From NCBI GenBank assembly GCA_958296055.1, contig CATQHS010000001.1:289917-353916 (forward strand): a stretch of DNA of 64,000 nt, read 5' to 3'. The notes under the pieces were generated by a model. The model worked only from the letters and a program-made list of their open reading frames with translations, made no database searches and was not told the origin of the DNA. Within the stretch, counting starts at the first letter, position 1; every line of letters starts with the position of its first letter. Below are positions 11,994 through 32,442 of this stretch, piece by piece. The stretch is from an uncultured Acidimicrobiales bacterium. GTDB lineage: Bacteria > Actinomycetota > Acidimicrobiia > Acidimicrobiales > Aldehydirespiratoraceae. The translations under genes were made by a program, and so were the position numbers.

Positions 11994-12959
11994 CTACCCG
12001 AGCCGCTGCCCCGCCATCCGGCCCAGCTCGTCGAGGGCGCCCCGGGCGCGCCCCACCGAGGCGAAGAAGCCCAAGAAGCCGTGGATCATGCCGCCGTAGT
12101 GCATCAAGACCGTGTCCACGCCGGCGTCGCTGCAGGCCCGGGCCAGGTCGAGGCCCTGATCGCGGAGCGGGTCGAGGCCGGCCGTGACCACCACGACGGG
12201 GCACAGGCCGGCCAGGTCGGCCCGCAGCGGGCTCAGCTCCGGCCTCGACCGGTCGGTCCCAACCGGCGCGTACTGGTCCCAGTACCACCCCATCTTGGCC
12301 GTGGTCAAGAAGTACCCCTCGGCCAGATCGGTCATCGAGGCGTCGTCGAGCCGGTGATCGACCACCGGGCAGGTGAGCAGGCACAGCCTCAGATTCGGGG
12401 CCCCGCCGTCCCGGGCCCGCAGGGCGACCCCCAGGGCCAGGTTGCCGCCCGCGCTGTCGCCCGCCACCCCCAGCCGCCCCGGGTCGACGCCCAGATCGGC
12501 GCCGCAGGCCGCGGCCCAGCGGCAGGCCGCCCAGGCGTCGTCGGCCGCGGCCGGGAACGGGTGCTCGGGGGCCAGCCGGTAGTCCACCGACAGCACCGCG
12601 CACCCGGCCCGGTTGGCCAGCGCCCGGCACAGGCCGTCCTGGATCTCGAGATCTCCGATCACCCATCCGCCCCCGTGCAAGAAGACCAGCAGCGGCGGCG
12701 CCGGCGGGCCGGGCGGGCCGGGGCGGTACAGCCGCAGCGCCAGGGGGCCGCCGGGGCCGTCGATGCTGAAATCCTCGACCTGATCCACCGGCTCCGGCGG
12801 ACCCTTGAGCCGGGCCAGGGCCGGCACCGGGGGGCGGCGGGCCGCCTCGACGCTGAAAGGCCCGGCGGGGCCGGCCAGCGACTCCAAGACGGCGGCCATC
12901 TCCGGATCGATGCCGCCGGCCGGGCGGTCGGCTGGTTTCGGCATGGTCTCAGCGGGCAT
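11994..12959 (-). CDS. Alpha/beta hydrolase fold-3 (HSL-type) esterase
   Basis: Contains the hormone-sensitive-lipase HGGG oxyanion motif (VFLHGGGWVIGD), the nucleophile GDSAGGN, and late strands with VTAGLDPLRDQG (Asp) and YGGMIHGFLGF (His). About 321 residues, usual for bacterial Aes/LipH-like carboxylesterases, which cleave short acyl esters in the cytoplasm. ATG at 12959 is chosen; a second ATG at 12944 is possible and neither has a strong ribosome-binding site. It is tail-to-tail with the Rieske gene (stops about 4 nt apart) and divergent from the importer operon. Confidence 0.85.
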   Translation of the reverse strand: MPAETMPKPADRPAGGIDPEMAAVLESLAGPAGPFSVEAARRPPVPALARLKGPPEPVDQVEDFSIDGPGGPLALRLYRPGPPGPPAPPLLVFLHGGGWVIGDLEIQDGLCRALANRAGCAVLSVDYRLAPEHPFPAAADDAWAACRWAAACGADLGVDPGRLGVAGDSAGGNLALGVALRARDGGAPNLRLCLLTCPVVDHRLDDASMTDLAEGYFLTTAKMGWYWDQYAPVGTDRSRPELSPLRADLAGLCPVVVVTAGLDPLRDQGLDLARACSDAGVDTVLMHYGGMIHGFLGFFASVGRARGALDELGRMAGQRLG

Positions 12960-12976
12960 CCGGCTAATTGACGGTG

Positions 12977-12996
12977 AAGTGTCTGATGTTACTATC
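12977..12996 (+). promoter_or_regulatory. Island motif, site 1 (importer operon)
   Basis: AAGTGTCTGATGTTACTATC lies 66 nt before the binding-protein gene and points towards it. It matches the motif at 23897-23917 (opposite strand) at nearly every position, and related sequences at 26577-26597 and 32351-32367. TACTAT could be a -10 element, with GTCTGA as an adjoining operator half or upstream element. Confidence 0.5.
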
Positions 12997-13061: not shown

Positions 13062-14303
13062 ATGAATTCGAGGTTTCTGAAAGCGCTGGCGCCGATGCTG
13101 GCATTCGGCCTGCTCGCCGCCGCCTGTGGCGGTGACGACGACACCGAGACATCCACCGGCGAAAGCACGACCGCCACCACGGCGGCCCCGGCGGACTCCG
13201 ACGACAGCCAGATGCCAGAGGAGGAGATGGCCTCCACCGACGACGACCAGATGGACGACGACGAGGAAATGCCCGCCGCCGACGACGAGATGCCAGAGGA
13301 GGAGATGCCCGCCGACGATGCCGAGATGGAAGAGATGGAGTTGTCGGGCCGTCTGGTGTGGTGGTCCGACTGGACGATCGAGCAGACCGAGGCCTTCATC
13401 GACGAGTTCAACGAGGTCCATCCGGGAATCCAGGTCGAGTACACCCGCTCGGACGACGCCGAGATGTACAACCGCTTCACCACCGAGTCCGCGGCCGGGA
13501 CCATCGACGCCGACATAGTGATCATCGGCTGGGACGGCTTCTCGCGCGGCTGGGACGCCGAGGGCTGGCTCCACGCCTACGACTCGCCCGAAGGGGCGGC
13601 GATCCCCGCCGAATCCCGGGCCGAGAACGGCACCTGGTACACCTACGGCACCCTCCTCGAGGGCATGTGCCACAACACCGAGCGGGTCGCCGAACTCGGG
13701 CTGGACGCCCCGACGCAGTGGGAGGATCTGGCCGATCCCCAGTACAAAGACGAGATCGTCATGCAAGACATCCTCAAGGTGGGCAGCGGCGCCCACGACC
13801 TCATGATCGAGACCAGGGTGTACTGGGACGACGACGAGCGCTGGGAGGCGTTCTGGGAGGGCTACGGAGCCAACAACGTGGTATTCCAGGCCAGCTACAC
13901 CGAGGCGCAGCAGCAGCTCGTGCAGGGCAACTTCGCGGTGCTCGGCCTCTGCTACCTCGACTTCGTCCAGCCGTCGATCGACCAGGGCGCCCCGGTGGTG
14001 TGGAGCGCGGCCGAGCCGGTGGTGACGGTGGGGTTCACCGTGAACATCCCGGTCAACGCGCCCAACAAAGAGAACGCCGAGGCGTTCGTCGACTTCATCC
14101 TCAGCGCGGACGGCCAAGCCGTGGTGGCCGACGTGGTCGGCCAGGTGCCGGCCCGGCCGGGCGCGCCGTTCCCCGAACCGGCCAAGGTGGCCGAGGGCAT
14201 CCCCCAGATCCTGGCCCTGGGCACCCCCCGGGCGCAAGCCGAGTACAACGACAACGCCCAGTGGTACGTCGAGTTGGCCAAGGAATGGTTCGACTTGCGC
14301 TGA
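13062..14303 (+). CDS. ABC transporter substrate-binding lipoprotein (Fe3+/polyamine type)
   Basis: 413 residues. The signal peptide ends in lipobox LAAAC (Cys22). Residues about 25-95 are an extremely acidic, Met-containing linker with repeats of MPEEEM and MPADD, after which the type II binding-protein fold starts (LVWWSDWTIEQTEAFIDEF). It continues with ADIVIIGWDG, WEDLADPQYKDEIV and a closing PNKENAEAFVDFILS. It binds a ligand outside the membrane and delivers it to the permease two genes on. The fold belongs with iron(III), thiamine, spermidine and phosphonate binders; the ligand cannot be told. First gene of a three-gene importer operon; GGAGGG precedes the ATG. Confidence 0.9.
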   Translation: MNSRFLKALAPMLAFGLLAAACGGDDDTETSTGESTTATTAAPADSDDSQMPEEEMASTDDDQMDDDEEMPAADDEMPEEEMPADDAEMEEMELSGRLVWWSDWTIEQTEAFIDEFNEVHPGIQVEYTRSDDAEMYNRFTTESAAGTIDADIVIIGWDGFSRGWDAEGWLHAYDSPEGAAIPAESRAENGTWYTYGTLLEGMCHNTERVAELGLDAPTQWEDLADPQYKDEIVMQDILKVGSGAHDLMIETRVYWDDDERWEAFWEGYGANNVVFQASYTEAQQQLVQGNFAVLGLCYLDFVQPSIDQGAPVVWSAAEPVVTVGFTVNIPVNAPNKENAEAFVDFILSADGQAVVADVVGQVPARPGAPFPEPAKVAEGIPQILALGTPRAQAEYNDNAQWYVELAKEWFDLR

Positions 14304-14340: not shown

Positions 14341-15525
14341 GTGACCGACATGGCAGCCGGCGAGTCCGCGGCCCCGCCGCCCGGTGGGCCCTCCGATCAG
14401 CCGGAGGGCCCACCGGCGGCTTCGCCCCCGGCAGAGCCGCCCGGCGGCCGGGAGGCGCTGCGGGTGGACGGCCTGGAGAAGTACTTCGGGCCGGTGGCCG
14501 CGCTCACCGGGGTCAGCTTCACCATCGGCACCGGCGAGTTCGTCACCCTGCTCGGGCCCAGCGGGTGCGGCAAGTCCACCATCCTGCGGATCGTGGCCGG
14601 GATCGAGGAGCCGAGCCGGGGGGCGGTGACCGCCGGGGGCGAGGTGGTGAACGACACCGAGGCGGGGCGGATGACGCCCCCCGAGACGCGCGACCTGAGC
14701 ATGGTCTTCCAGTCCTACGCGGTGTGGCCCCACATGACCGTGGCCAAGAACGTGGCCTTCCCCCTCCGCTACCGGAAGGTCCCCCGGCGGGAGCGGGCCG
14801 CCATGGTGGACGACGCGCTGCGGGCGGTGCGGATGGACGGCTTCGCCGACCGCTACCCGCACCAGCTCTCGGGCGGGCAGCAGCAGCGGGTGGCCATCGC
14901 CCGGTCCATCGTCGCTCGGCCGGGGCTGCTGCTGCTCGACGAGCCCCTCTCCAACCTCGACGCCCGCCTGCGCGAGGACATGCGGATCGAGCTCAAGCGG
15001 CTGCAGCTCGAGCTGGGCCTCACCATGCTGTACGTGACCCACGACCAGGCTGAAGCCCTGGCCATGTCGGACCGGATTCTGGTGATGGACCACGGCCGGG
15101 TGCTCCAAGAGGGCACCCCCGAGGAGGTGTACCGGGGGCCGGAGTCGCTGGCCGCGGCCCGGTTCCTGGGCGTGAAGAACACCTTCGGAGGCACGCTGGC
15201 CGGTCCGGGGACCGTCGAGGTGCTCGGGCGCAAGCTGCCCGCCCGGGTGGTCGGGGAGGCCGCGACCGGCGGCCCGGTGACGGTGGCCATCCGGCCCGAC
15301 GGCTTCGTGCCGGCCTCCCCGGGCGGGTCAGCCATCGCCGGGGAGATACGGCTGACCGAGTTCCTGGGCCAGGCCTACGACCACGAGATCGACGTCGACG
15401 GCGTCACCCTCATTGTCCGCACAGCCGAGCGCCTCGGCGACCGGGGCGACGCCGTCACCTTGGGCCTGGCGCCGTCGGCCGCGGTGGCCTTCGCCGAGCC
15501 CCCCGAGGGCGAGCCCGGCGGATGA
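14341..15525 (+). CDS. ABC importer ATP-binding protein (PotA/FbpC type)
   Basis: 394 residues; GTG at 14341 or ATG at 14350 are both possible and add only a Pro/Ala-rich lead of about 35 residues. Walker A is LLGPSGCGKSTI, the Q-loop MVFQSYAVWPHM, the signature LSGGQQQR, Walker B GLLLLDEPLSNLD and the switch His is in YVTHDQ. A C-terminal TOBE domain (VAIRPDGFV and following) is present. It powers import by the permease encoded next, whose ATG overlaps this stop by 4 nt. Confidence 0.93.
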   Translation: MTDMAAGESAAPPPGGPSDQPEGPPAASPPAEPPGGREALRVDGLEKYFGPVAALTGVSFTIGTGEFVTLLGPSGCGKSTILRIVAGIEEPSRGAVTAGGEVVNDTEAGRMTPPETRDLSMVFQSYAVWPHMTVAKNVAFPLRYRKVPRRERAAMVDDALRAVRMDGFADRYPHQLSGGQQQRVAIARSIVARPGLLLLDEPLSNLDARLREDMRIELKRLQLELGLTMLYVTHDQAEALAMSDRILVMDHGRVLQEGTPEEVYRGPESLAAARFLGVKNTFGGTLAGPGTVEVLGRKLPARVVGEAATGGPVTVAIRPDGFVPASPGGSAIAGEIRLTEFLGQAYDHEIDVDGVTLIVRTAERLGDRGDAVTLGLAPSAAVAFAEPPEGEPGG

Positions 15526-17234
15526 GCGCATCGACGGCGCTCCGCCGCCGAGTGCTGTCTTTCCCGTTTCTGCTGCGGGTCGGGTTGAGCGCCGGCGTGG
15601 CCGTGCTGGTGGTCTTCCCCTTCTACCGGCTGATCCTCGGCTCCTTCCAGACTGGGGGGCCGCCGGAGCGGGGGGCCCTGACGCTGGAGAACTACCGGGC
15701 CACTTTCCACAAGTCCAGCGACATCATCACCAACACGCTGCTGTTCGCCATCGGCCAGACCATCGTGCCGCTGGTCATCGGGGTACTGCTGGCCTGGGCG
15801 GTGACCCGCACCGACGTGCCCTGGCGGGGGGTGTGGGAGTTCTCCACCCTGGGCCTGTACTTCATCCCCCTGCTGGCTGCGGGCACGGCCTGGAGCATCC
15901 TGCTCGGCGGCCGCAACGGCATGCTCAACGAGCTGATCCGGGCGGTCACCCCCTGGGACGGCTTCGACGTGAACTCGATGGCCGGGATGGTCTTCGTTCA
16001 GTCCCTCTACCTGGTCCCGCTGGTCTTTTTGGTCGTCGGGGCCAGCATGCGCAACGTCCACCCCGACTACGAGCACGCCTCCCGCATCAACGGGGCGTCC
16101 CCGTGGGCCACGTTCAGGCGGATCACCCTGGGGGTGTCGCGGCCCGCCCTGCTGGCCTCGGCGGTGCTGTGCTTCATCATCGGCCTCGGCTCGATGGAGG
16201 TACCGCTCCTGTTCGGCTTCCCGGCCCGCGAGCACGTGTTCACCACCGACATCTACAACGCGCTGCGGGTGCGGTTCCCGCCCGAGCACGGGCGGGCCTC
16301 GGCCACCGGCGTGGTGCTGTTGGCCGGGGCGATGGTGGTGCTGGTGCTGTATCTGCGCTCGATCCGCCACAGCGAGCGCTACGTGACCGTGGCGGGCAAG
16401 AGCGGGCCCGAGACGCCGGTGCGCCTCGGGCGGTGGCGCTGGGTGGTGTTCGGGCTCTGCTCCGGGTTCTTCTTCTTCACCATGGTGCTCCCCTTTGCCG
16501 CGGTGGTGGTGGGGTCCCTGCTGCCCTACATCGGCCGGCCCGACACCGAGCTGCTGGCCCAGTCGTCGCTGGAGAACTACCGACAGCTCTCCGACAACCC
16601 CATCCTGTGGCGGTCCCTGAAGAACAGCCTGATCCTGTCGCTGGGGGCCGGGTTCTTCGTCATGGTGTTCGGGTCGCTCATCGCCTACTGCGTGGTCCGC
16701 TTCAAGAGCCGGTGGAGCCGGATGATCGACTACGGGGGCAGCCTTCCGCTGATGATCCCCGCGGTGGTGCTGGCCACCTCGCTGCTGTACACCTACATCA
16801 CGCTGAGGCTCCCGGGCGGGTTCACCCTCTGGGGCACGCTGTGGATCATGGGCATCGCCTACGCCGTCTGGTTCCTGCCGGTGTCCATCCGCCAGATGAC
16901 CGGCCCGATAGTGCAGCTCTCGGTGGATTTGGAGAACGCCAGCCGGATCTCGGGGGCGGGCAGCCTGGCCACTCTGGCCCGGATCGTGATCCCCATCCTG
17001 CGCCCGGCCCTGCTGGGGGGAGTGGTGCTGGCCTTCATCAGCTTCATGCGGGAGTTCACCGCGTCGGTGCTGCTGTTCCGGTCGGGCACCGAGGTGATCT
17101 CGACGGTGATGTACAGCTTCTACTCGAACGGCCGGCTGCCGTTCGTGGCCGCCATCTCCGTCGGCCTGTGGGTGGCCAGCCTGATCCTGATGCTGGTGCT
17201 CAGGTTCCTGCTGAAGGCCCGGATCAGCTTCTGA
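15522..17234 (+). CDS. ABC importer permease, two fused halves (FbpB/ThiP type)
   Basis: 570 residues with about 12 membrane segments in two homologous halves, as in FbpB and ThiP where one gene replaces two permease subunits. Each half has a coupling EAA-like loop: EHASRINGASPWATFRRITL in the first and ENASRISGAGSLATLARIVI in the second. The stop region TCAGCTTCTGACCG is repeated once directly after the stop (17223-17250). The three genes form one importer that probably feeds the island's substrate to the cell. It converges on the MmgE/PrpD gene. Confidence 0.93.
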   Translation: MSASTALRRRVLSFPFLLRVGLSAGVAVLVVFPFYRLILGSFQTGGPPERGALTLENYRATFHKSSDIITNTLLFAIGQTIVPLVIGVLLAWAVTRTDVPWRGVWEFSTLGLYFIPLLAAGTAWSILLGGRNGMLNELIRAVTPWDGFDVNSMAGMVFVQSLYLVPLVFLVVGASMRNVHPDYEHASRINGASPWATFRRITLGVSRPALLASAVLCFIIGLGSMEVPLLFGFPAREHVFTTDIYNALRVRFPPEHGRASATGVVLLAGAMVVLVLYLRSIRHSERYVTVAGKSGPETPVRLGRWRWVVFGLCSGFFFFTMVLPFAAVVVGSLLPYIGRPDTELLAQSSLENYRQLSDNPILWRSLKNSLILSLGAGFFVMVFGSLIAYCVVRFKSRWSRMIDYGGSLPLMIPAVVLATSLLYTYITLRLPGGFTLWGTLWIMGIAYAVWFLPVSIRQMTGPIVQLSVDLENASRISGAGSLATLARIVIPILRPALLGGVVLAFISFMREFTASVLLFRSGTEVISTVMYSFYSNGRLPFVAAISVGLWVASLILMLVLRFLLKARISF

Positions 17235-17289: not shown

Positions 17290-18678
17290 TCAGGCCGCAG
17301 GGCGGGTCAGGGCGTCGGTCAGGGCCTTCCAGGAGCCGGGCTCGCCGATGCTCAGGGCGTGCTCGGCGATGGCCCGGCGGGCCGCCTCGCCGTAGACGCA
17401 GGCGGCCAGCGAGTCGAACTTGTCGCGGATCTCGGTCGGGGTCAGCGGGTTCCCCGGATCGCCCTTGGGCTCGTCGGTCTCGGCGTAGAAGGAGTCGCCG
17501 CCCGCGGCCACCCGGGCCCACGCCCGCCACTTCTCGGGGTAGACCCGGTCGATCTCGGGGTCGACCTCATAGCGGACCCGGTCGGCCAGATCGAGCACGT
17601 CCTTGTCGTCGAGCACCTCTTCGCGGTACTCGGCCAGCCCGGCCCGCCCCCGCACCAGGGCCACCGCCGCGCCGTACGGCAGGCTGAACTGGGCGTCCAC
17701 CACCGAGCGGGGGCGGCGCTTGGCCGCGGCCGGCTCGGTGACGATGTCCACCGCCACCGAGGGCACGCCGATGAGCACGTCGGCCACCTCGTCGCCGGCC
17801 AGGCCGTGGGCGGACCGGATGGCGAGCAGCGTGTCGATGGGGCCCTGGTTGTAGCGGCAGCAGGTGTGGGCCTTGACGCTGGTGGCCGAGATCTCCAGCG
17901 GCCGGTCCCCCCAGCCCTCCAGGAGCCGGTCGGGGCGGGGCGCGCTGCTGTAGGCGGCCAAGAAGCCCCGCTGGCCGGCGATCCCGTCGACGGTCCCCCG
18001 GTAGCCGTCGGCGGCCAGGAGGGCGGCCTCCAGCCCGTTGCGGGCGGCCAGCGCCGGGTGCAGGCGCTTGGTCCAGGCCCCGTCGACCAAAAACTGCATG
18101 CTCCCCGAGGCCATGGACCCGGCGATCCCGACAGCTGACACCAGATCGTCGACGCCGAGGCCGAGGACCGCGCCCGCGGCCGCGGCCGCGCCCAGCGCGC
18201 CGATGGTGCCTGTCGGGTGGAAGTGGCGCTCGTAGTGGGCGGGCGGGTCGGCGGCCCGGCCGGCCCGGCACATCACCTCGTAGCCGACGGCCGCGCCCCG
18301 CACCAGCTCCCGCTCGCCCGCGGCGGCCAGGGCGGTGGCGGCCATGACCGCCGGGAAGATCACCGTCCCGGGGTGGCTGGACGAGGCGTTGTGGACGTCG
18401 TCGTATTCGATTGAGTGCCCGGCCACTGCGTTGGCCATGGCCGCCACCGCGGCCGGGGCCGACTCGCCGGTCCCGACGACCGGCGCGGTGGCCGGGGCGC
18501 TGTAGCCGACCCGGTGCAGGGTGCGGCGGAAGCAGACGGCCGAGTCGGTGGTCGAGCCGTTGGCGGCCACTCCGAGATGGTCGAGCAGCAGGGTGCGCAC
18601 CGCGGCCAGGTCGGCCTCGGTCAGGTCGTCGTAGCCGATCCCGCTCGCCGCTTCGAGCAGTTCTCTGGTTTGGCTCAT
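17290..18678 (-). CDS. MmgE/PrpD family protein
   Basis: 462 residues matching the MmgE/PrpD fold: N-terminal helical domain with LLDHLGVAANGS, then GHSIEYDDVHNASSSHPGTVIFPA, AAGYEVMCRAG-like HFHPTGTIGALGAAAAAG, and the C-terminal VKAHTCCRYNQGPIDTLLAI with QFSLPYGAAVAL. The family includes 2-methylcitrate dehydratase PrpD and cis-aconitate decarboxylase, and many members of unknown substrate. The ATG overlaps the stop of the RidA gene (ATGA), so it is coupled to the pentein-RidA-RidA run upstream. A dehydration or decarboxylation of a tricarboxylate-like intermediate is inferred. Confidence 0.88.
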   Translation of the reverse strand: MSQTRELLEAASGIGYDDLTEADLAAVRTLLLDHLGVAANGSTTDSAVCFRRTLHRVGYSAPATAPVVGTGESAPAAVAAMANAVAGHSIEYDDVHNASSSHPGTVIFPAVMAATALAAAGERELVRGAAVGYEVMCRAGRAADPPAHYERHFHPTGTIGALGAAAAAGAVLGLGVDDLVSAVGIAGSMASGSMQFLVDGAWTKRLHPALAARNGLEAALLAADGYRGTVDGIAGQRGFLAAYSSAPRPDRLLEGWGDRPLEISATSVKAHTCCRYNQGPIDTLLAIRSAHGLAGDEVADVLIGVPSVAVDIVTEPAAAKRRPRSVVDAQFSLPYGAAVALVRGRAGLAEYREEVLDDKDVLDLADRVRYEVDPEIDRVYPEKWRAWARVAAGGDSFYAETDEPKGDPGNPLTPTEIRDKFDSLAACVYGEAARRAIAEHALSIGEPGSWKALTDALTRPAA

Positions 18679-19118
18679 GGCCGGCCCTCCTTCACGTCGC
18701 CGTCGTCAGGTCGCCGTCGTCGGGTCGCCGCGATCACGTCGATCTCGATGAGCATCCCCTCGATGGCGAAGTTCGAGGCCTCGATCATGGTGGACACCGG
18801 GTGCCGGCCCTCGTCGAAGAACTCGGCCCGGACCTCGCGCACCGGCCACTTGTGGTTGTCGATGTCGCTCAGGTACACGGTCATGTCGCAGATGTCGTCC
18901 AGCGTCGCCCCCGCGGCTTCGAGCTCTATGGCAATGAGCTCGAAGCAGCGGCGGGTCTGCTCTTTGATGTCGTCGGAGGTGACGGTCAGGTCGGGGCCGA
19001 CCGCGGCCATGCCCGCCACGAAGATGAGGTTCTGGGGATTGGTGACCTTCACCACATGGCTGTAGCTGCGTTTTCTCAAATCCCACAGGCCGGCGGGGTT
19101 GATGACTTCTTTGGGCAT
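18675..19118 (-). CDS. RidA-family protein (copy A)
   Basis: 147 residues, RidA/YjgF fold: starts MPKEVINPAGLW, has NLIFVAGMAAVGPD and ends with IEGMLIEIDVIAAT. The Arg that binds carboxylates in true RidA is replaced or shifted (VREVRAEFFDEGRHPVSTMIE), so substrate use may differ. RidA proteins hydrolyse reactive enamines or imines, or act in pathways such as RutC. The C-terminus past IAAT (RRRRPDDGDVKEGRP) comes from a local repeat of GCGACC(C/T)GACGACG which removed the original stop and carried the frame into the MmgE/PrpD start. About three quarters identical to copy B just upstream. Confidence 0.9.
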   Translation of the reverse strand: MPKEVINPAGLWDLRKRSYSHVVKVTNPQNLIFVAGMAAVGPDLTVTSDDIKEQTRRCFELIAIELEAAGATLDDICDMTVYLSDIDNHKWPVREVRAEFFDEGRHPVSTMIEASNFAIEGMLIEIDVIAATRRRRPDDGDVKEGRP

Positions 19119-19131
19119 GGGAAAACCGGCT

Positions 19132-19530
19132 TCAGGTCGCTGCGATCACGTCGATCTCGATGAGCATCCCCTCGATGGGCAGGTTCGAGACCTCGACCAT
19201 GGTGGACGCCGGGTGTCGGCCCTCGTCGAAGAACTCGGCCCGGACCTCGCGCACCGGCCACTTGTGGTTGTCGATGTCGCTTAGGTACACGGTCATGTCG
19301 CAGATGTCGTCCAGCGTCGCCCCGGCGGCTTTGAGGTCTGCGGCGATGTGCTCGAAGCAGCGGCGGGTCTGCTCTCTGATGTCGCCGGTGATGACGTCGG
19401 TGTCGGAGCCGAACGCGGCCATGCCCTCTACGAAGATGAGGCTCTGGGGGTTGGTGACCTTCACCACGTGGCTGTAGCTGCGTTTTCCCAAGTCCCACAG
19501 GCCGGCGGGGTTGATGACTTCTTTAGGCAT
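19132..19530 (-). CDS. RidA-family protein (copy B)
   Basis: 132 residues, tandem paralogue of copy A; the two share the N-terminus MPKEVINPAGLWDL-KRSYSH and most later positions. It ends right after IAAT, which is likely the ancestral end. GGTTTTTTC-type spacing with AAAGG upstream of the ATG gives a plausible ribosome-binding site. It follows the pentein gene by 21 nt. Nucleotide identity with copy A is high throughout, so the duplication is young. As trimers form in this family, heterotrimers are possible. Confidence 0.9.
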   Translation of the reverse strand: MPKEVINPAGLWDLGKRSYSHVVKVTNPQSLIFVEGMAAFGSDTDVITGDIREQTRRCFEHIAADLKAAGATLDDICDMTVYLSDIDNHKWPVREVRAEFFDEGRHPASTMVEVSNLPIEGMLIEIDVIAAT

Positions 19531-19551: not shown

Positions 19552-20724
19552 TCAGCGGTCGGTGGAGTAGGGACCCTTCTCGCGCCAGATCTGCCCGGTG
19601 GAGCAGTGTAGGCCCCCGCCCTCTTTCATGAACTCCGAGTAGGGCACCTCGATGACCTCGACGCCGGCCTGGCGGACCTTGGCGATGCTCTCGGTGGCCT
19701 CGGCGTGCATTATCACCAGGCCCGGCTCGATGAGCATGACGTTGGCCGGCCCGAACCGCACGTGCTCGGTGTGGTCCACCTCCACGATCGTGTAGCCCCG
19801 GGTCCGCAGCCACTCCAGGGTGGTGAAGTCGAGGCCGGGCGGGTAGGCGATGACCTTGTCGACGTCCAGGGCGGCCAGCAACAGGTCGGGGTGGTGGCTG
19901 GTGCCGGTGGCGGCGTCGTAGTAGCAGGACCCCGGGAACTCGACGTGCAGGAAGGTCATGTCCTCGATGTCCAGGCCGGCTGAGCGGGCCACCACCGGCT
20001 TGACCTGGGCCAGGCCCTCGTCGTTGAAGGCCATGCCGTTGCCGGAGATGAACACGTCCTCGGCCAAGAAGGAGCAGGGCCCGATCTCGAAGATCCCCCG
20101 GCCGGTGACCGCGAACAGCACGGGCACGCCCAGCCGGGTCCACGCCCACAGCGCCATGTACTCGGCCCGGCCGTAGGCCAGGGGCTGCACCCCGCGCTTG
20201 GGCAGCACCGACCCGCCCCGCAGCACGAACAGCTCCGCCGCCCCCCAGGTGCTCTTGCCGGGTCCGTAGGCGGACACCGGGGGCTGGGGGAAGCGGATGC
20301 GGTGCACGGTCACGCCCTGGGACTCGAGGGCCTGCTCGTAGGCCAGGCTCTGGTCGGTCATCTTGGGTATGTCGATGCTGTCGTAGGCGTCGGCCATCTT
20401 CGGGAAGTACTCGGGGTCCAGGTCGTGGTACGGGAACTTCTCGGCCTCGGTGATCTCGGTCAGCACCACCTCGCGGAGCCGGCCGATCCCGTTCTTGCCG
20501 CACTCGCGGCCCCACACCCGCGGGTACACCTCCAGATGGTCCAAGCGGTGCCACACGTCGGTGGAGGGGGCCTTCCCCTTCACGTAGCCCGGCATCTGCT
20601 CCAGCGTGAACTCGCCGGCCCGCAGCCGCCGCTGCATGTCGGCGACCCGCTCCTCGTACACCGGCGGCAGCGGCGGGATCGTGGGCACGCCCGCCTCCAC
20701 CGCCGGGGCGGCCTCAATAGTCAT
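19552..20724 (-). CDS. Pentein-fold amidinotransferase/DDAH-like protein (copy A)
   Basis: 390 residues. The C-terminal GGGLHCST holds the catalytic Cys of the guanidine-modifying (pentein) superfamily, the catalytic His is in GTSHHPDLLLAALD, and SFLAEDVFISG occupies the place of the acidic guanidinium-binding motif. Length and layout (N-terminal ~100 residues before the fold) are close to amidinotransferases such as AGAT. It could move an amidino group, or hydrolyse a guanidine or amidine. The ATG at 20724 follows AGGAGG; a GTG one codon upstream is possible. Preceded by a 30-bp tandem repeat and coupled to it by TGATG. Closely related to copy B at 22689-23840. Confidence 0.85.
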   Translation of the reverse strand: MTIEAAPAVEAGVPTIPPLPPVYEERVADMQRRLRAGEFTLEQMPGYVKGKAPSTDVWHRLDHLEVYPRVWGRECGKNGIGRLREVVLTEITEAEKFPYHDLDPEYFPKMADAYDSIDIPKMTDQSLAYEQALESQGVTVHRIRFPQPPVSAYGPGKSTWGAAELFVLRGGSVLPKRGVQPLAYGRAEYMALWAWTRLGVPVLFAVTGRGIFEIGPCSFLAEDVFISGNGMAFNDEGLAQVKPVVARSAGLDIEDMTFLHVEFPGSCYYDAATGTSHHPDLLLAALDVDKVIAYPPGLDFTTLEWLRTRGYTIVEVDHTEHVRFGPANVMLIEPGLVIMHAEATESIAKVRQAGVEVIEVPYSEFMKEGGGLHCSTGQIWREKGPYSTDR

Positions 20725-20828
20725 CACAACCTCCTCATCGGGTTCAAACTCATCGGTTCAGACTTCATCGGGTTCAAATCCATCGTTTCAGACTTCATCG
20801 GGTTCAAATCCATCGTTTCAGATTTCAT
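20724..20828 (-). other. Bridging mini-ORF built from 30-bp repeats
   Basis: Reading through the repeats at 20731-20828, a 34-codon frame starts 4 nt after the SDR stop and ends TGATG on the pentein start. It is three rounds of the ten residues MKSETMDLNP, the last diverged. Because the repeat is a multiple of three, the frame stays open. Its 3' end carries GATGAGGAGG, the ribosome-binding site of the next gene. Confidence 0.5.
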
Positions 20829-20830
20829 CG
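20731..20830. repeat. 30-bp tandem repeat (about 3.3 copies) in an operon junction
   Basis: Two exact 30-bp units lie at 20761-20790 and 20791-20820, flanked by a diverged unit at 20731-20760 and the first 10 bases of another after 20820. On the minus strand each unit contains a TGA and a GATGA, the elements of the SDR stop and the next gene's Shine-Dalgarno area. Confidence 0.9.
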
Positions 20831-20832
20831 GT

Positions 20833-21585
20833 TCAGAACACTCCCCCGGTCACCGACAGCGACTCGGCGGTTATGCACGAGGCCAGATCGGAGGCCAAGA
20901 AGACCACGGCGTCGGCCACGTCGCCGGGCTGCACCAGCCTGCGCAGCGCGGTCCTGGCGATGATCTGATCCTCGATCTCCCCCACCGACGCGCCCAGCCG
21001 TCGGGCGTCCCGGGCCATCGTGTCGGTGTTCATCTCCGAGGAGACCGCGCCGGGGCAGACGGCGTTGACCCGGACGCCAGCCGGTCCGACCTCTCGGGCC
21101 AGCGACTGGGTGAGGCCGATCACGCCGAACTTCGACGCGCAGTAGCCGGAGAAGTCGGGCTCGCCCCTCAGGCCGCCAATCGACGAGATGTTCACGATGC
21201 TGCCCCCGCCGGCCGAGGCCATGAGCGGGGCGAAGGCCCGGCAGACCAGGAACACGCCGGTGAGGTTGACGTCGATCGTCTCCTGCCACCGATCCGGGTC
21301 GATCTCGGCCACCGATCCGAACCGGGCCACCGCCGCGGTGTTCACCAGGGTCGTCACCGGGCCGTGCTCGTCCCAGGCCCGGGCCGCGGCCCGCTCGACC
21401 TGGCCGCGGTCAGACACGTCCACCGCCCGGGCCCCCAGGCCGCCGGTTCGGGCCGCGGCGAGGGCGGGCTCGGACACGTCCCACACCTCCACCCGGGCGC
21501 CGTGCTCGGCCAGCCGCCGGGCGATCACCATCCCGATGTCGCCCGCGCCGGTGACCACGGCGCGGCGCTGATCGAGGAGCCCCAC
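20833..21585 (-). CDS. SDR-family oxidoreductase
   Basis: 250 residues with TGAGDIGMVIA (cofactor loop), VDVSD, NTAAVARFG, catalytic Ser in VNISSIGGLRG, and YCASKFG for Tyr-x3-Lys; ends TGGVF. The glycine-rich loop reads TGAGDIG instead of TGxxxGIG, a mild variant. Part of the minus-strand run LLM - SDR - pentein - RidA - RidA - MmgE/PrpD. Reaction is NAD(P)-dependent alcohol/carbonyl interconversion; substrate unknown. Confidence 0.9.
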   Translation of the reverse strand: MGLLDQRRAVVTGAGDIGMVIARRLAEHGARVEVWDVSEPALAAARTGGLGARAVDVSDRGQVERAAARAWDEHGPVTTLVNTAAVARFGSVAEIDPDRWQETIDVNLTGVFLVCRAFAPLMASAGGGSIVNISSIGGLRGEPDFSGYCASKFGVIGLTQSLAREVGPAGVRVNAVCPGAVSSEMNTDTMARDARRLGASVGEIEDQIIARTALRRLVQPGDVADAVVFLASDLASCITAESLSVTGGVF

Positions 21586-21612
21586 CCGGCCGGCCCGCCC
21601 GCCTCGGTCCGC

Positions 21613-22692
21613 TCAGGCCGCGGCCAGCGGGGGCGCCGCCAGCCGGGGGGCGACCTCGCCCATGAACAGCTCGTGGGACCGGCGCACCTGCTCGAAGGTC
21701 AGCTCGCCGAAGGAGAACTCCCCGACGAAGACGTTCACGCCCAGACGGTCGCGCAGGCGGTCGATCTGGGCCGCCACCGTGGACGGCGAGCCGTGCACGA
21801 ACCGGAGTCCTTCGGCCGCGGCGTCCATGTCGGCCCGGATGGCGGCCATGCGGCCCAGCGAGGCCGAGGTGGCCTGGCGGATGGCGGAGTCGCCCGCCCG
21901 GTGCGAGCGCCGCCTCTCGTCTTCGAACAGGGCGAGCTGGCGCAGGAAGTGGTCGTACATGAGCTCTTTGGCCTCGGCGTCGGTGTCGGCCACCAGGGCC
22001 GAGGCCAGGTAGCACACCGGGCGCCGGTCGGGGGGTACGCCGGCCTCGTCGCAGCCCCGCCGGTACTCGGAGAACACCGTCTCGTACAGCCCCATGCCGA
22101 CCACCGCGAACCCCCCGATGCCGAAGCCGCGCTTGCCGTACTGGTAGGCCGTCGCCGGGGTGTTGGTGGGGATCCACACCGGGGGGTGGGGGGTCTGGAG
22201 GGGCTTCCAGGGCAGATCGACGTCGATGTATTGCCAGTATTCGCCCACGTAGGAGAAGGGGCCGTCGCTGGTGAACGCCTTCAGCACGATCTCCAAGCCC
22301 TCCTCGAACCGGGCCCGGTCGCTGTGGGTGTTGATGCCGTAGGAGGTGTGCTCGTGGGGGGTGATGCCCCGGCCGAAGCCCATCTCCAGGCGGCCGCCGG
22401 ACATGTGGTCCAAGATGAGCATCTCCTCCACCACCCTCAGCGGCTGGCTGATGGGGAGCAGGACCACCATCGGCCCAAACCTCATCCGCTCGGAGTTCTG
22501 GGCGACGACGGTGAGCGACACCGGCTGGGACGGGGCCATGGAGAAGCGGCCGGTGAAGTGGTGCTCGGTGGTGAAGAAGTAGTCGTAGCCCAGCTCGTCG
22601 GCCAGCCGCACCTCGGCGGCGAACTCGTCGAGCCGCTGCTTGGGGGTGGCCGTCGCCTTCTCGGCGACGTGGCTGAAGACGGCGAACTTCAC
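21613..22692 (-). CDS. Luciferase-like (LLM) flavin-dependent oxidoreductase 1
   Basis: 359 residues of the bacterial-luciferase TIM-barrel family: LADELGYDYFFTTEHHF near the N-terminus, RMRFGPMVVLLPISQPLRVVEE, GGRLEMGFGRG and PHPPVWIPTNTP. Members use FMNH2 or F420 to oxygenate or reduce; RutA, alkanesulfonate and EDTA/NTA monooxygenases belong here. ATG at 22692 overlaps the end of pentein copy B, so the two are coupled. One of three LLM enzymes in the island; an associated flavin reductase is not seen, so it may be F420-dependent (inferred). Confidence 0.88.
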   Translation of the reverse strand: MKFAVFSHVAEKATATPKQRLDEFAAEVRLADELGYDYFFTTEHHFTGRFSMAPSQPVSLTVVAQNSERMRFGPMVVLLPISQPLRVVEEMLILDHMSGGRLEMGFGRGITPHEHTSYGINTHSDRARFEEGLEIVLKAFTSDGPFSYVGEYWQYIDVDLPWKPLQTPHPPVWIPTNTPATAYQYGKRGFGIGGFAVVGMGLYETVFSEYRRGCDEAGVPPDRRPVCYLASALVADTDAEAKELMYDHFLRQLALFEDERRRSHRAGDSAIRQATSASLGRMAAIRADMDAAAEGLRFVHGSPSTVAAQIDRLRDRLGVNVFVGEFSFGELTFEQVRRSHELFMGEVAPRLAAPPLAAA

Positions 22693-23840
22693 GGCCGATC
22701 CGTCGAATAGGGGCCCTTGTCCCGCAGCAGCCGCAGAGTGGAGCAGTGCAGGCCGCCGCCGATGCGGAGGAACTCCGAGTAGGGCGTCTCGATCACCTCC
22801 ACCCCGGCCTTGCGCACCGCGGCCACGGCGTTGGGGGCCTCGGCGTGCATGATCACCAGGCCGGGCTCGATCTGCATGACGTTGGCCGGGGCGAAGCGCC
22901 GCTGCTCCTCGGGCTCCACCTCGACCATCTCATAGCCCCGCTTGCGCAGCCACTCGTAGGTCCTGAAGTCGAGGCTGGGGGGGTAGACGATCACCTTGTC
23001 GACGTCGAGGGACCCCAGCGACATGTCGGGATGGTGCGACTGCCCGGTTTTGGGGTTGAAGTAGATGTTGCCGGGGAAGTTGACGGCCAGCGTGGTCATC
23101 TCCGACTCCTCCAGGCCGGCCGACCGGGCCACCACGGGAAGGATCTGGTCGAGGCCCTCTTGGTTGTAGGCCAGGCCCCGGCCGGCCACGAAGACGTCCT
23201 CGGCCAGCCAGAAGCACGGCCCGGCCTCGCAGACCCCGGTGCCGGTGATGGTGAAGATGGGCGGGATGCCCAGGCAGGCGAAGGCCCACAGGGCCAGGTA
23301 CTCGGCCCGGCCGGTGCCGAAGGGGCTGATGGCGATCTTCTCAATGATCGAGCCGCCCCTCACCACCAGCAGCTCGTTGGCCGCCCAGGTGCCCCGCATG
23401 GGCCCGTAGGCCCCCACCGCGGGCTGGGGGAAGTCGATGCGGTGTACGGCCACGCCCGCCCCCTCCAGGCAGGCCTGATAGGCCAGGCTCTGGTCGCGCA
23501 TCCGCCCGATGTCGAGATCGTCGTGGGAGAGCCCCATGGTGGGGAAGTACTGCGGGTCGTCGTCGTAGAGCGGGAACCGCTCCGACTCGGTGATGTTCAC
23601 CAGGGCCGCCTCCCGCAGCCTGCCGATCCCGTTGGCCCCGCACTCGCGCCCGTAGATCTTGGCGTAGATGTCCAGGTAGTCCATCTGGTGCCAGACGTCG
23701 GGGTTGGGGGGCCGCCCGGGCTCGTAGCCGGGGAGGCTTTCGAGGTTGAAGCCGCCCGATTCGAGTTCGGCCTGGGTGGCCGCGATGCGATCGGCCCACA
23801 CCTGGGGAAGTGGCGGTTCGGTCGGGACGTTTGAAGCCAT
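22689..23840 (-). CDS. Pentein-fold amidinotransferase/DDAH-like protein (copy B)
   Basis: 383 residues, aligned end to end with copy A: shared WGRECG/YGRECGANGIGRLRE, QSLAY, AYGP-x-TWAANELLVVRGGS, GTGRAEYLALWAF, FWLAEDVFVAG, SHHPDMSLGSLDVDKVI, and the terminal GGGLHCST with the catalytic Cys. The start is the ATG at 23840 with GGGGTG upstream. First gene of the large minus-strand run; the upstream intergene carries site 2 of the island motif. As both paralogues keep Cys and His, both may be active, on different substrates or as a mixed complex. Confidence 0.85.
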   Translation of the reverse strand: MASNVPTEPPLPQVWADRIAATQAELESGGFNLESLPGYEPGRPPNPDVWHQMDYLDIYAKIYGRECGANGIGRLREAALVNITESERFPLYDDDPQYFPTMGLSHDDLDIGRMRDQSLAYQACLEGAGVAVHRIDFPQPAVGAYGPMRGTWAANELLVVRGGSIIEKIAISPFGTGRAEYLALWAFACLGIPPIFTITGTGVCEAGPCFWLAEDVFVAGRGLAYNQEGLDQILPVVARSAGLEESEMTTLAVNFPGNIYFNPKTGQSHHPDMSLGSLDVDKVIVYPPSLDFRTYEWLRKRGYEMVEVEPEEQRRFAPANVMQIEPGLVIMHAEAPNAVAAVRKAGVEVIETPYSEFLRIGGGLHCSTLRLLRDKGPYSTDRP

Positions 23841-23896
23841 GCGCACCCCGGTCAGCGGTCGGTGACGGTCGCCGGGCGGTCGCCGGCCCGACGCCG

Positions 23897-23917
23897 AATA
23901 GTAAACATCGGACACTT
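23897..23917 (-). promoter_or_regulatory. Island motif, site 2 (pentein copy B operon)
   Basis: On the minus strand the bases read AAGTGTCCGATGTTTACTAT, 57 nt before the pentein copy B start. The best match to site 1. It lies in the 184-nt divergent gap between the pentein operon and the M24-like gene; nothing else was recognised in that gap. Confidence 0.5.
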
Positions 23918-24024
23918 TAGCCCGGTCAAGCAGCCCCCACCCGCGGTCAAACCGCCTCTGGCCCGAAGTCAAGCAGCCCCCCACCCCCACCGGGGCCCGG
24001 CCGCGGAAGGGTTACGCTGCGGGC

Positions 24025-25218
24025 GTGGCAGTGCTGTCGGCCGCCGAGCGGGACCGGCGCTGGGGGGTGCTGCGGGAGGCGATGGGCGCCGAGGGCTGGT
24101 CAGCCCTGGTGGTGGCGGGCGGCCCCGATCCCGGTCCGGTCCGCTACCTCTCCGGCAGCCCGGAGCTGACCGCGGACTGCGCCGTGGTGATGACCGAGGA
24201 TCGGGCCCCGGTGCTGCTCGCTCCAGCCGGCGCCGGGCTGCGGGGCGGGCCGGGCTGGATCGACGAGGTCCGGGCCGTGGCCGGCCCCAGAGCCGTCGGG
24301 GACGCGGCGCTCGAGCGGCTGGACTGGCCCGGACCCGGTGATCGCGCCCGCGGTATGGGCGGGGGCGTCGGGGGCGCGGCGCTTGAGCGGCTGGGGAGCG
24401 GCGGCGGCCGGGTGGGCGTCGCCGATCTGGGGGCCGGGCCGGCCGGCCTCGTCGAAGCCCTGCGGGGCCGGTTCGAGCTGGCCGACGCCGGGCCGGCTGT
24501 CGCCGCCTGCCGGGCGGTGAAGAGCCCCGAAGAACTCGATGCCGTGCGGGAGGCGGCCTGGGTGGCCGACCGCTGCTTCGAGCACCTGCTGGAGACGGCC
24601 GAACCCGGCCGGACCCTGCGCCAGGTGGCCGCCGGCCTGGCCCGTCGGGCCCTGTCGCTCGGCGCCTGCCGCCTCGAGGTGAGCGTCCCGGCCGGCGCTT
24701 TCGCCAGCGGGCGGATCAGCGCGGCCCGGGGGCCCGACGACGCCGCCTTGATCCCGAGCCGGCCGCTCCACCCCCGCTTGGAGGTGACCGGGCGCCTCGG
24801 GTACCGGTCGGTTCTGGGCCGGCCGGTCGGGTTCGCTCCTCCCGGCGAGGTCACCGAGCGGACCGCCCGGGCCGCAGCAAAGGCGCTCGACGCGGCGGTG
24901 CGGGTCTTGGCCCCCGGCCTCGCCGGCGACGCCGTGCAGCGGGCGGCCGCCGAGGCCGCCGCCTCCGAAGGCGCCGCTCTGGTGGGGCCGATCGGCGGCG
25001 GAATCGGCCTCGGCGGCAGCGAGCTCCCGGCGGTCGCCGCCGGGTCGGCCTACGTGATCGCTGCGGGCAACGCCATCGCCCTGCTGGTCCACGTCGTCGA
25101 CGAGGCCACCGGCGAGGAGGCCAGCGCGGCCGACACCGTGATCGTCGGGACCGACACCGGGCGGCGGCTCTCAGAGCTCCCGGTCGGGACGCTCTACCCG
25201 GGCCGACCGCCGCGCTAA
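24025..25218 (+). CDS. M24-family (creatinase/Xaa-Pro peptidase) pseudoenzyme
   Basis: 397 residues. The N-terminal creatinase-type domain is visible (WSALVVAGGPDPGPVRYLSG), and the 'pita-bread' domain begins at VKSPEELDAVREAAWVAD. The five metal ligands of M24 enzymes are not where expected: the D-x-G...D strand is VTGRLGYRSVLGRP, and the His motif HGxGHGIG is PIGGGIGLGG. So it probably lacks metallopeptidase activity. Creatinase itself needs no metal and uses another His, which I cannot place here. A segment GGAALERLG repeats DAALERLD. Divergent from pentein copy B. GTG start at 24025. A role in binding or modifying a guanidino or amide substrate is only inferred. Confidence 0.7.
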   Translation: MAVLSAAERDRRWGVLREAMGAEGWSALVVAGGPDPGPVRYLSGSPELTADCAVVMTEDRAPVLLAPAGAGLRGGPGWIDEVRAVAGPRAVGDAALERLDWPGPGDRARGMGGGVGGAALERLGSGGGRVGVADLGAGPAGLVEALRGRFELADAGPAVAACRAVKSPEELDAVREAAWVADRCFEHLLETAEPGRTLRQVAAGLARRALSLGACRLEVSVPAGAFASGRISAARGPDDAALIPSRPLHPRLEVTGRLGYRSVLGRPVGFAPPGEVTERTARAAAKALDAAVRVLAPGLAGDAVQRAAAEAAASEGAALVGPIGGGIGLGGSELPAVAAGSAYVIAAGNAIALLVHVVDEATGEEASAADTVIVGTDTGRRLSELPVGTLYPGRPPR

Positions 25219-25304: not shown

Positions 25305-26510
25305 TCAGCCGCCCGGCGCGCCGAAGGCGCCCTGGGCGGCTAGGGCGTCGATGCGGGCCCGGTCGTAGCCGAGCAGGTTCTCCAGCACGTGGCCCCGGTC
25401 GGCGTCGAGCGGCGGAGCCCGGCGGTGATCTTCACGGGGCGGCCCCACCCTCACCGGCGTGACCGGCTGCCACACCGTCCCGAAATGGGGGTGCTCGGTG
25501 CCCGCCACCAAGCCCCGGGCCTGGGTGTGGGGATCGCGCAGCGCCTCGGGAACAGACTGAACCGGCCCGGAGGGAACGCCCGCGGCTCGCAGCGACTCCA
25601 GCCACTCCGCGGTCCCCCGGGTGCGGAAGATCTCCCCGAGCAGCCCGATCAGCTCGTCTTTGTGCTCGCGGCGGGCGGTGAAGTCGGCGAAGCGGGGATC
25701 GTCGGCCAGTTCGGGGCGGCCCAGGACCTCGGCCAGGCGCTGCCAGAACTTCTCCTTGGCGCAGCCGACCACCAGCCAGCCGTCGCTGGCCTCGAACAAC
25801 TGGAACGGCACCAGCGAGGGATGGCCCGAGTCGGCCACCCGCTCCGGCTCGAACCCGCCGGTCAGGTGCCACGTCCCCAGGTAACCGAGGAGGCTGACGG
25901 CGGTGTCGAACAGGCTGAGGTCGCAGTCCATGCCCACCCCGTCGCGGCGGGCGGCGTGGATGCCGGTCAGCAGGGCCACCGCGGCCACCAGGCCGCCCGA
26001 GAAGTCCACCAGCGACAGGCCGGACTTGGTGGGCGGCCCGTCGGGCTCCCCGGTCAGCGCCATCCAGCCGCACAGGCCCTGCAGGATGTAGTCGTAGCCG
26101 GGCTGGGCGGCCCGGGGCCCGGTCATGCCGAACCCGCTGAGCGAGCAGCACACGATGCGGGGGTTGGCGTCCTTGAGGTGCCGGTAGCAGATCTCGAGGC
26201 TCTCGGGGACGTCGCCGCGCAGGTTCGAGAACACCGCGTCGGACCGGGCCACGAGATCGAGCAGCACGGCCCGGCCCGCGGGGCTGCGGACGTCGAGGGC
26301 GAGGCTGCGCTTGTTGCGGTTGTAGGTCTCGAAGAACAGGCTGTCGTCGTCGATCTGGAACGGCGGGACGTACCGGCCCACGTCGCCCCCCGAGCCCGGA
26401 TCCTCGATCTTGACGATCTCGGCGCCGAGATCGGCGAGGTGCATGGTGGCGAAGGGCCCGGCGCCGTACTGCTCCAGGGCCACGATCCGCACGTCTTCCA
26501 GCGGTCTCAT
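25305..26510 (-). CDS. CaiB/BaiF class III CoA-transferase
   Basis: 401 residues. Typical start PLEDVRIVALEQYGAGPFATMHLADLGAEIVKIE, with the catalytic-Asp region SDAVFSNLRGDVPESL and the GYDYILQGLCGWMALTG segment followed by LVDFSGGLVAAVALLTGI. These enzymes move CoA between acyl-CoA and a free carboxylic acid without external energy. It may activate the island's acid intermediate for the MaoC and acyl-CoA dehydrogenase steps. Divergent from LLM 2. The stop context is partly repeated downstream (GGCTGAG at the stop and again about 55 nt on). Confidence 0.9.
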   Translation of the reverse strand: MRPLEDVRIVALEQYGAGPFATMHLADLGAEIVKIEDPGSGGDVGRYVPPFQIDDDSLFFETYNRNKRSLALDVRSPAGRAVLLDLVARSDAVFSNLRGDVPESLEICYRHLKDANPRIVCCSLSGFGMTGPRAAQPGYDYILQGLCGWMALTGEPDGPPTKSGLSLVDFSGGLVAAVALLTGIHAARRDGVGMDCDLSLFDTAVSLLGYLGTWHLTGGFEPERVADSGHPSLVPFQLFEASDGWLVVGCAKEKFWQRLAEVLGRPELADDPRFADFTARREHKDELIGLLGEIFRTRGTAEWLESLRAAGVPSGPVQSVPEALRDPHTQARGLVAGTEHPHFGTVWQPVTPVRVGPPREDHRRAPPLDADRGHVLENLLGYDRARIDALAAQGAFGAPGG

Positions 26511-32306: not shown

Positions 32307-32350
32307 GATCCTCCGACCCCTCGCTGACCCTCGCGCTTGTGAGTTTGAAA

Positions 32351-32367
32351 CTGTATACCTCAGACTT
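32351..32367 (-). promoter_or_regulatory. Island motif, site 4 (Rieske 2 operon)
   Basis: On the minus strand AAGTCTGAGGTATACAG lies 45 nt before the Rieske 2 start in the 136-nt divergent gap. It fits the GTCTGA-x-GTTTAC pattern of the other sites; GTATAC also fits GntR-type operator half-site rules. Confidence 0.45.
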
Positions 32368-32442
32368 CTAGGCTCCGGGCCGACCAGACGGGAGCGGATC
32401 GGACGGGCCGGCTGACCGGGCCGAACGAGGACGGGGGCGGAG

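What the first reader, a model, noticed from the sequence alone, without database searches (positions are those of the whole stretch)
19552..25218. Two amidinotransferase-like penteins beside a metal-less creatinase-like protein
Penteins of the AGAT/DDAH type and an M24 creatinase-fold protein meet in one divergent pair. M24 metal ligands are missing. Creatine-type chemistry joins these two families, so the pair may handle guanidino acids. Both penteins keep Cys and His.
Basis: partly seen in the sequence, partly recalled or inferred. Interest (0 to 1): 0.5.

Follow-up and report, generated by a model that had tools for sequence, protein, structure and literature searches.

The report
Twin NnhA-type penteins in degradative gene cluster
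Two related enzymes of a poorly known family, whose one studied member breaks down a nitroimidazole antibiotic, sit in a large gene cluster shared with related bacteria, some of them from marine sponges, that probably imports and degrades an unidentified nitrogen-rich compound; the neighbouring creatinase-like gene looks like an inactive bystander.

Summary
The three proteins exist as described: two penteins with intact Cys, His and Glu, and a divergent M24-fold protein that has lost all five metal ligands. The family label and the pairing do not hold. The penteins (60% identical to each other) are closest to 2-nitroimidazole nitrohydrolase NnhA (E 3e-53), not AGAT or DDAH. They lie in a conserved 14-gene degradative cluster with a luciferase-like monooxygenase, SDR, RidA-like protein, CoA enzymes, a Rieske oxygenase and an ABC importer, found whole or in part in 9 loci of 8 Acidimicrobiia MAGs; 4 loci carry bin names traced to sponges in papers. 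The M24 gene is absent from 8 of 8 loci spanning its place. PenA and PenB keep NnhA's catalytic residues, lack the arginine-carboxylate clamp, and have Glu at NnhA's Trp149 site. I read them as hydrolases of a cationic amidine or guanidine, possibly cyclic, other than arginine. The substrate is unproven. Orthologs are rare: none in 40 related genomes, and none but the window's own in samples of 395 (class) and 396 (phylum).

The parts
19552..20727 (-). PenA: NnhA-type pentein, 391 aa; E214, H279, D281, N329, C375
   Evidence: PDB best match NnhA 9azg E 2.7e-53, residues 59-389; catalytic residues aligned; 79-82% to PenA of 7 loci
22689..23840 (-). PenB: second NnhA-type pentein, paralog of PenA (60%); same catalytic residues
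   Evidence: 84-87% to PenB of 8 loci; start set by ortholog alignment
20833..21585 (-). SDR oxidoreductase between the penteins
   Evidence: Pfam adh_short_C2 9e-58; conserved position
21613..22692 (-). LLM1: luciferase-like flavin monooxygenase
   Evidence: Pfam Bac_luciferase 1.1e-52; conserved position
19132..19530 (-). Rid2: RidA-family protein, tandem copy seen only in the window
   Evidence: 91.5% nucleotide identity to Rid1 over 400 bases
18675..19118 (-). Rid1: RidA-family protein
   Evidence: 81-83% to the Rid of 7 loci
17290..18678 (-). MmgE/PrpD-family protein (closest solved: iminodisuccinate epimerase, IRG1)
   Evidence: 69-70% in 7 loci
15522..17234 (+). fused ABC permease (nearest NCBIfam model 2-aminoethylphosphonate PhnU2, below cutoff)
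   Evidence: 81-83% in 5 loci
14341..15525 (+). ABC ATPase
   Evidence: orthologs 70-72% in 5 loci; the L010 ortholog is Pfam ABC_tran
13062..14303 (+). ABC solute-binding protein
   Evidence: orthologs 77-79% in 5 loci
11994..12983 (-). alpha/beta hydrolase (Abhydrolase_3), start approximate
   Evidence: orthologs 67-68% in 4 loci; Pfam of the L010 ortholog
10824..11990 (+). Rieske oxygenase, closest solved carnitine monooxygenase CntA
   Evidence: orthologs 69-73% in 5 loci
9925..10827 (+). fumarylacetoacetate-hydrolase-family protein
   Evidence: orthologs 79-81% in 4 loci
25305..26510 (-). CaiB/BaiF-type CoA transferase, directly before PenB in the other genomes
   Evidence: Pfam CoA_transf_3 3.8e-119; 75-77% in 8 loci
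34602..35765 (-). acyl-CoA dehydrogenase, ortholog (81-83% in 7 loci) of the one that lies between Rid and MmgE in those loci; at another place in the window
24025..25218 (+). M24-fold protein without metal ligands, lying between PenB and CaiB; not part of the conserved cluster
   Evidence: absent from 8 of 8 spanning loci

Best explanation
PenA and PenB are paralogous, probably both active, cysteine hydrolases of the NnhA branch of the pentein (guanidino-group modifying) superfamily. They work inside a degradative gene cluster of Acidimicrobiia, some of them from sponges. An ABC importer brings in a nitrogen-rich small molecule. The pentein Cys attacks the central carbon of an amidine or guanidine group (open or part of a ring), expels an amine, and water steered by His/Glu frees a urea-type product. 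A luciferase-type monooxygenase, a Rieske oxygenase, an SDR, a RidA-like protein and CoA-linked and other enzymes (CaiB, acyl-CoA dehydrogenase, MmgE/PrpD, FAH-family) break down the remainder. Shown: residues, gene order, conservation. Inferred: the reaction class, from NnhA/ADI/DDAH chemistry, and that the cluster degrades rather than makes something. Guessed: the identity of the substrate. The M24 protein is a bystander.
For: Near full-length similarity to NnhA and none comparable to AGAT, DDAH or ADI. PenA/PenB group with a gene annotated as Streptomyces nnhA, support 99/97. NnhA's E197, H260, D262, N311 and C357 are all present as E214, H279, D281, N329 and C375. A Glu, invariant in 9 of 9 aligned PenA/PenB, stands at NnhA W149; NnhA's M168 and S216, which replace arginine-clamp residues of ADI/DDAH, are Ala or Gly here. 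CaiB-to-MmgE order is complete in 6 of 9 loci and consistent in the other three, which contig ends cut. Purifying selection on both penteins among the related MAGs, omega 0.04-0.16. Of 5 more distant plasmid-borne relatives whose surroundings I fetched, 3 lie beside ABC-transporter genes (Ensifer by eye) and one beside a molybdenum hydroxylase.
Against: No substrate evidence. In the sequence alignment the canonical RD-motif Asp column is Ala (PenA) or Asn (PenB), and the Glu is one residue further on, so its role depends on the NnhA paper's structural equation of W149 with that Asp. The predicted PenA model was useless (mean pLDDT 36), so no pocket was seen. The cluster's CoA enzymes and Rieske oxygenase could serve a substrate without a guanidine. 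The Thermomicrobium relative and one Actinomycetota-phylum relative (L066) show no such catabolic neighbours.
Confidence: 0.5

Rival explanations
1. PenA and PenB are nitrohydrolases like NnhA and detoxify or use 2-nitroimidazoles.
For: Closest characterised relative is NnhA; same catalytic set.
Against: Only 35-36% identity to the Streptomyces NnhA; the hydrophobic W149 and F146 are Glu and Gly/Ala; a large importer and CoA-linked cluster is more than resistance needs. The NnhA authors say activity below 50% identity is hard to predict.
Confidence: 0.12
2. Creatine or guanidino-acid handling by the penteins together with the M24 protein.
For: Creatine and creatinine are reported as sponge-derived compounds that may feed symbionts (PMC6742649, passages); pentein chemistry fits guanidino acids; a Shinella pentein/ABC operon is followed by a gene annotated Xaa-Pro aminopeptidase (that such enzymes are often M24 is recalled).
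Against: M24 gene absent from all 8 spanning loci; all ligands lost; arginine-carboxylate clamp missing; [quoted passage not shown]
Confidence: 0.08
3. The penteins are amidinotransferases in a biosynthetic cluster.
For: Same superfamily; the profile reaches AGAT, inosamine-phosphate amidinotransferase and SxtG at 1e-8 to 6e-7.
Against: Weak, C-terminal matches only; the neighbours look like import and degradative enzymes.
Confidence: 0.08
4. One pentein is catalytic and the other mainly structural, in a mixed ring.
For: NnhA forms a hexameric ring of domain-swapped dimers (abstract of PMC11659421); PenA and PenB occur together in the 6 loci long enough to show both fully.
Against: Both keep every catalytic residue and both are under purifying selection.
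Confidence: 0.15

Closest known systems
2-nitroimidazole nitrohydrolase NnhA (PDB 9azg, Mycobacterium sp. JS330)
   Same: Near full-length homology; catalytic Glu/His/Asp/Asn/Cys
   Different: 35-36% identity to the gene annotated Streptomyces nnhA; Glu instead of Trp149; Gly instead of Cys352; two paralogs in a degradative cluster
Arginine deiminase / DDAH
   Same: Pentein catalytic centre
   Different: Only profile-level similarity (1e-17 to 1e-23); no arginine-carboxylate clamp at the M168 and S216 sites
AGAT amidinotransferase
   Same: Superfamily
   Different: Profile match about 1e-8, C-terminal third only
'Arginine deiminase family' penteins in Rhizobiaceae and Haladaptatus plasmids
   Same: 24-28% identical to PenA; beside ABC-transporter genes
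   Different: Keep the RD motif; no shared LLM/CaiB cluster seen
Rut pyrimidine degradation (recalled)
   Same: Luciferase-like monooxygenase plus RidA-like protein plus hydrolase
   Different: No pentein in Rut (recalled); RutC model far below cutoff for the Rid proteins here

Membership tests
NnhA (2-nitroimidazole nitrohydrolase) | Near full-length homology and catalytic E197/H260/D262/N311/C357 | tested here: met
   with paper residues
NnhA (2-nitroimidazole nitrohydrolase) | Close orthology, over 50% identity (the paper's working line) | tested here: not met
   34.9% (PenA) and 36.1% (PenB) to Streptomyces nnhA
NnhA (2-nitroimidazole nitrohydrolase) | Hydrophobic pocket with W149 and F146 | tested here: not met
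   Glu and Gly/Ala at these sites
NnhA (2-nitroimidazole nitrohydrolase) | Nitrite release from 2-nitroimidazole | not testable with these tools
   needs an assay
ADI / DDAH | Arg residues that bind the substrate carboxylate | tested here: not met
   Ala184/Ala233 in PenA and Gly/Ala in PenB at the NnhA M168/S216 sites
ADI / DDAH | NCBIfam curated cutoff | tested here: not met
   best PenA score 31.7 bits against a cutoff of 414
AGAT amidinotransferase | Full-length similarity | tested here: not met
   C-terminal match only, about 1e-8
Creatinase / M24 peptidase (the M24-like protein) | M24 fold by profile | tested here: met
   Peptidase_M24 39.4 bits, cutoff 23
Creatinase / M24 peptidase (the M24-like protein) | Metal ligands D, D, H, E, E | tested here: not met
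   0 of 5 kept
Creatinase / M24 peptidase (the M24-like protein) | Creatinase's own catalytic His and Glu (recalled) | tested here: inconclusive
   Glu site is Leu354; the 'PH' His motif of many relatives is missing, but no creatinase was aligned

The most novel reading that the evidence does not exclude
Acidimicrobiia living in sponges carry a dedicated pathway, not described in the papers I searched, that imports and dismantles a sponge-derived cyclic guanidine (2-aminoimidazole-like) or similar amidine. A pair of NnhA-branch penteins, perhaps a mixed hexamer, removes the C2 nitrogen, and a luciferase-type monooxygenase then opens the ring. NnhA itself would be an offshoot of this chemistry that was recruited against an antibiotic.
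Probability: 0.2. Interest if true: 0.72.

Novelty: new variant of a known kind. Interest (0 to 1): 0.5.

Why it matters
The NnhA branch has one characterised member; its authors describe its relatives as uncharacterised and say their activity is hard to predict. A conserved cluster with a transporter and oxidative and CoA enzymes gives that branch a testable metabolic setting. It may also point to a nitrogen source that sponge bacteria draw from their hosts.

Tried and rejected
M24 as a partner: rejected, because it is missing from 8 of 8 spanning loci and has no close relative in 8 cassette genomes and 40 kin genomes. AGAT/DDAH label: rejected. Recent horizontal gain as the only reason for rarity: weakened. 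A protein that I take by eye for CinA is 70-72% identical in the four cassette genomes tested against 64% and 66% in two same-family genomes without the penteins; a third, G003, gave only a partial 53% match. Structure prediction of PenA with 9 sequences failed (pLDDT 36), so no fold search was made; the M24 protein was not folded. 2-aminoimidazole alkaloids as the specific substrate: not claimed. They are reported from several sponges (listing); aerophobin-2 is a major alkaloid of Aplysina aerophoba (passages; that it carries a 2-aminoimidazole is recalled); I know of none from Ircinia. The LLM of the Streptomyces nnhA cluster gave no hit to LLM1 at 1e-4, so that parallel is only at family level. 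The genome scan looks for two short peptide patterns, so relatives that lack them were missed. Literature, open library only: 'pentein'+'sponge' gave 1 paper, on DDAH in cancer; amidinotransferase/RidA/luciferase-like terms gave 0; '2-nitroimidazole nitrohydrolase' gave 1 paper. These searches showed no description of this cluster.
Full report
What is there. PenA (19552-20727, -) and PenB (22689-23840, -) are two pentein genes, 60% identical. Between them lie an SDR and a luciferase-like monooxygenase, LLM1. Downstream on the same strand are two RidA-like genes and an MmgE/PrpD gene. The M24-like gene (24025-25218, +) points away from PenB. PenB begins at the ATG at 23840, where its orthologs begin, not at the listed GTG at 23990.

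Family. With PenA as query, the best solved structure is 2-nitroimidazole nitrohydrolase NnhA, E 2.7e-53 over residues 59-389. The best arginine deiminase match covers only residues 328-383, at 2.5e-4. A profile of 11 relatives gives NnhA 1e-121, DDAH and ADI 1e-17 to 1e-23, AGAT about 1e-8. A tree of 16 rows puts PenA and PenB together with the gene annotated Streptomyces nnhA (support 99/97); the root is drawn at the midpoint only, the fork of all PenA and PenB rows is 90/99, and the program warns of long branches, NnhA among them. The PenA rows form a clade (99/100); the PenB rows of the MAGs group at 92/92 and the window's PenB is unresolved beside them. The window's PenA is 79-82% identical to PenA of the MAGs and its PenB 84-87% to theirs, against 60% to each other, so the duplication is older than the split of these genomes.

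Active site. The NnhA paper (PMC11659421; abstract, sections 6 and 9 and passages seen) names E197, H260, D262, N311 and C357; mutants of H260, D262, N311 and C357 were inactive. All five are present in PenA and PenB. NnhA's second pocket cysteine C352 is Gly. The two sites where NnhA lost the carboxylate-binding Arg of ADI/DDAH (M168, S216) are Ala/Ala in PenA and Gly/Ala in PenB. NnhA W149, which the authors place at the second guanidinium-binding Asp, is Glu in 9 of 9 PenA/PenB sequences aligned. I mapped the paper's numbers to the PDB chain by hand, offset 7. Against a simple reading: the sequence alignment puts the RD-motif Asp one column earlier, where PenA has Ala and PenB has Asn. I infer a cationic amidine or guanidine substrate without an arginine-type carboxylate grip. 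No structure supports this yet; the prediction failed.

Gene cluster. One scan of a genome collection with PenA+PenB returned 9 loci, all titled as MAGs of Acidimicrobiia or Acidimicrobiaceae, from 8 genomes. Six of the 9 (L010-L015) hold CaiB, PenB, LLM1, SDR, PenA, Rid, acyl-CoA dehydrogenase and MmgE in this order on one strand. The other three (L009, L016, L017) are cut by contig ends and agree where they overlap. The ABC permease, ATPase, solute-binding protein and Rieske oxygenase follow in 5 of 9, and the alpha/beta hydrolase and FAH-family genes in 4 of 9. The four loci without the ABC genes end before that point; L015 has the ABC genes and ends inside the Rieske gene, and the alpha/beta hydrolase was not matched in it. 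Identities to the window are 67-87%. Among the five (PenA) or six (PenB) MAG loci compared, omega is 0.04-0.16; comparisons with the window give 0.18-0.35. In the window the dehydrogenase lies at 34602-35765, a tandem Rid copy (91.5% nucleotide identity) sits near its usual place, and the M24 gene sits between PenB and CaiB.

M24. Between the CaiB and PenB matches the 8 loci that span the place (L010-L017) hold 86-214 bases. The M24-like protein has only distant relatives: best E 1.2e-10, 28% over 213 aa, among 40 other kin genomes, and matches at E 3.5e-7 or worse in 6 of the 8 cassette genomes. Of 29 relatives found, 26 of ordinary length were aligned and 3 were dropped for length. All five metal ligands are missing in the window protein.

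Distribution. No PenA ortholog in 24 same-family and 16 same-order genomes; five of the 41 genomes, own included, had any match, the other four weak (best 2.6e-8). In 395 genomes of the class, 4 had a match at 1e-15, only the own genome at ortholog level. In 396 of the phylum, 4 at 1e-20, again only the own at ortholog level; the next is 4e-68. These samples are drawn from larger groups. A protein that looks like CinA is 70-72% identical in four cassette genomes and 64-66% in two same-family genomes, so the cassette genomes look like close kin. The window's own class is not named by any search; Acidimicrobiia is inferred. A remnant of a third pentein lies beside a tRNA-Ser gene elsewhere in the genome.

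Sponge link. Bin names of the form jk18x are from Caribbean Ircinia (PMC9531527, passages), and 277c is a Petrosia ficiformis specimen (PMC8941161, passages). These names cover 4 of the 9 loci (L009, L015, L016, L017), 3 of 8 genomes. That SB06xx bins are from Ircinia ramosa and APA from Aplysina aerophoba is recalled; p16x bins share the jk18x naming style but the term was not found in that paper. The source of the window's own genome is not told. So sponge origin is supported for some and inferred for the rest.

Wider context. Of 8 plasmid records with a PenA relative I fetched 5 regions. The Streptomyces gene annotated nnhA is followed by molybdenum-hydroxylase subunits, an LLM and an SDR. 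The Shinella relative lies inside an ABC-transporter operon, the Haladaptatus one beside a spermidine/putrescine ABC transporter, and the Ensifer one, unannotated, before genes that I read by eye as an ABC transporter (ATPase similarity). The Thermomicrobium one shows no such neighbours. Of two NnhA-like genes of other genomes of the phylum, one lies by eye beside a molybdenum hydroxylase (L065) and the other has no evident catabolic neighbours (L066). An LLM1 relative (47%) in another genome of the window's class sits with Rieske, alpha/beta hydrolase and acyl-CoA dehydrogenase relatives; PenA and PenB gave no match in that 20-kb stretch. This suggests that the penteins adapt a general degradative module to a particular substrate; that is inference from one case.

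Verdict. The penteins are a new subfamily of a known kind in a cluster for which I found no description; the M24 neighbour is incidental. A guanidine or amidine hydrolase role is likely but unproven; the substrate is open.

Noticed in passing
window 33854-34591 (-): Heme-oxygenase-like diiron oxidase (CADD/PqqC-like) 10 bp from the acyl-CoA dehydrogenase; no match in the stretches held of the other cassette loci. Such enzymes include the N-oxygenase of azomycin synthesis (recalled).
   Followed up: partly
window 18675-19530 (-): Tandem RidA-like genes, 91.5% identical in DNA; by eye the canonical RidA Arg (recalled, Arg105) is not conserved in them or in four orthologs printed.
   Followed up: partly
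L003, G000:C1:1701919-1702086: Pentein remnant of about 56 residues (50% to PenA) next to a tRNA-Ser gene: perhaps a decayed third copy at an integration site.
   Followed up: partly
window 31128-32534 (-): Second Rieske oxygenase, 41-49% identical to the cassette's Rieske in five loci, near LLM2, a third Rid and LLM3, which have no ortholog in the stretches held of the other cassette loci.
   Followed up: no
window 29306-30550 (-): Amidohydrolase with HutI-like and Xaa-Pro dipeptidase model matches below cutoff.
   Followed up: no
L058 12045-13409: A gene annotated Xaa-Pro aminopeptidase follows the pentein/ABC operon in Shinella: possibly a second pentein/M24 neighbourhood; its family was not tested.
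   Followed up: no
L070 (G040): A distant pentein (L004, E 2.6e-8) next to isochorismatase-like and gamma-butyrobetaine-dioxygenase-like genes (names by eye).
   Followed up: no
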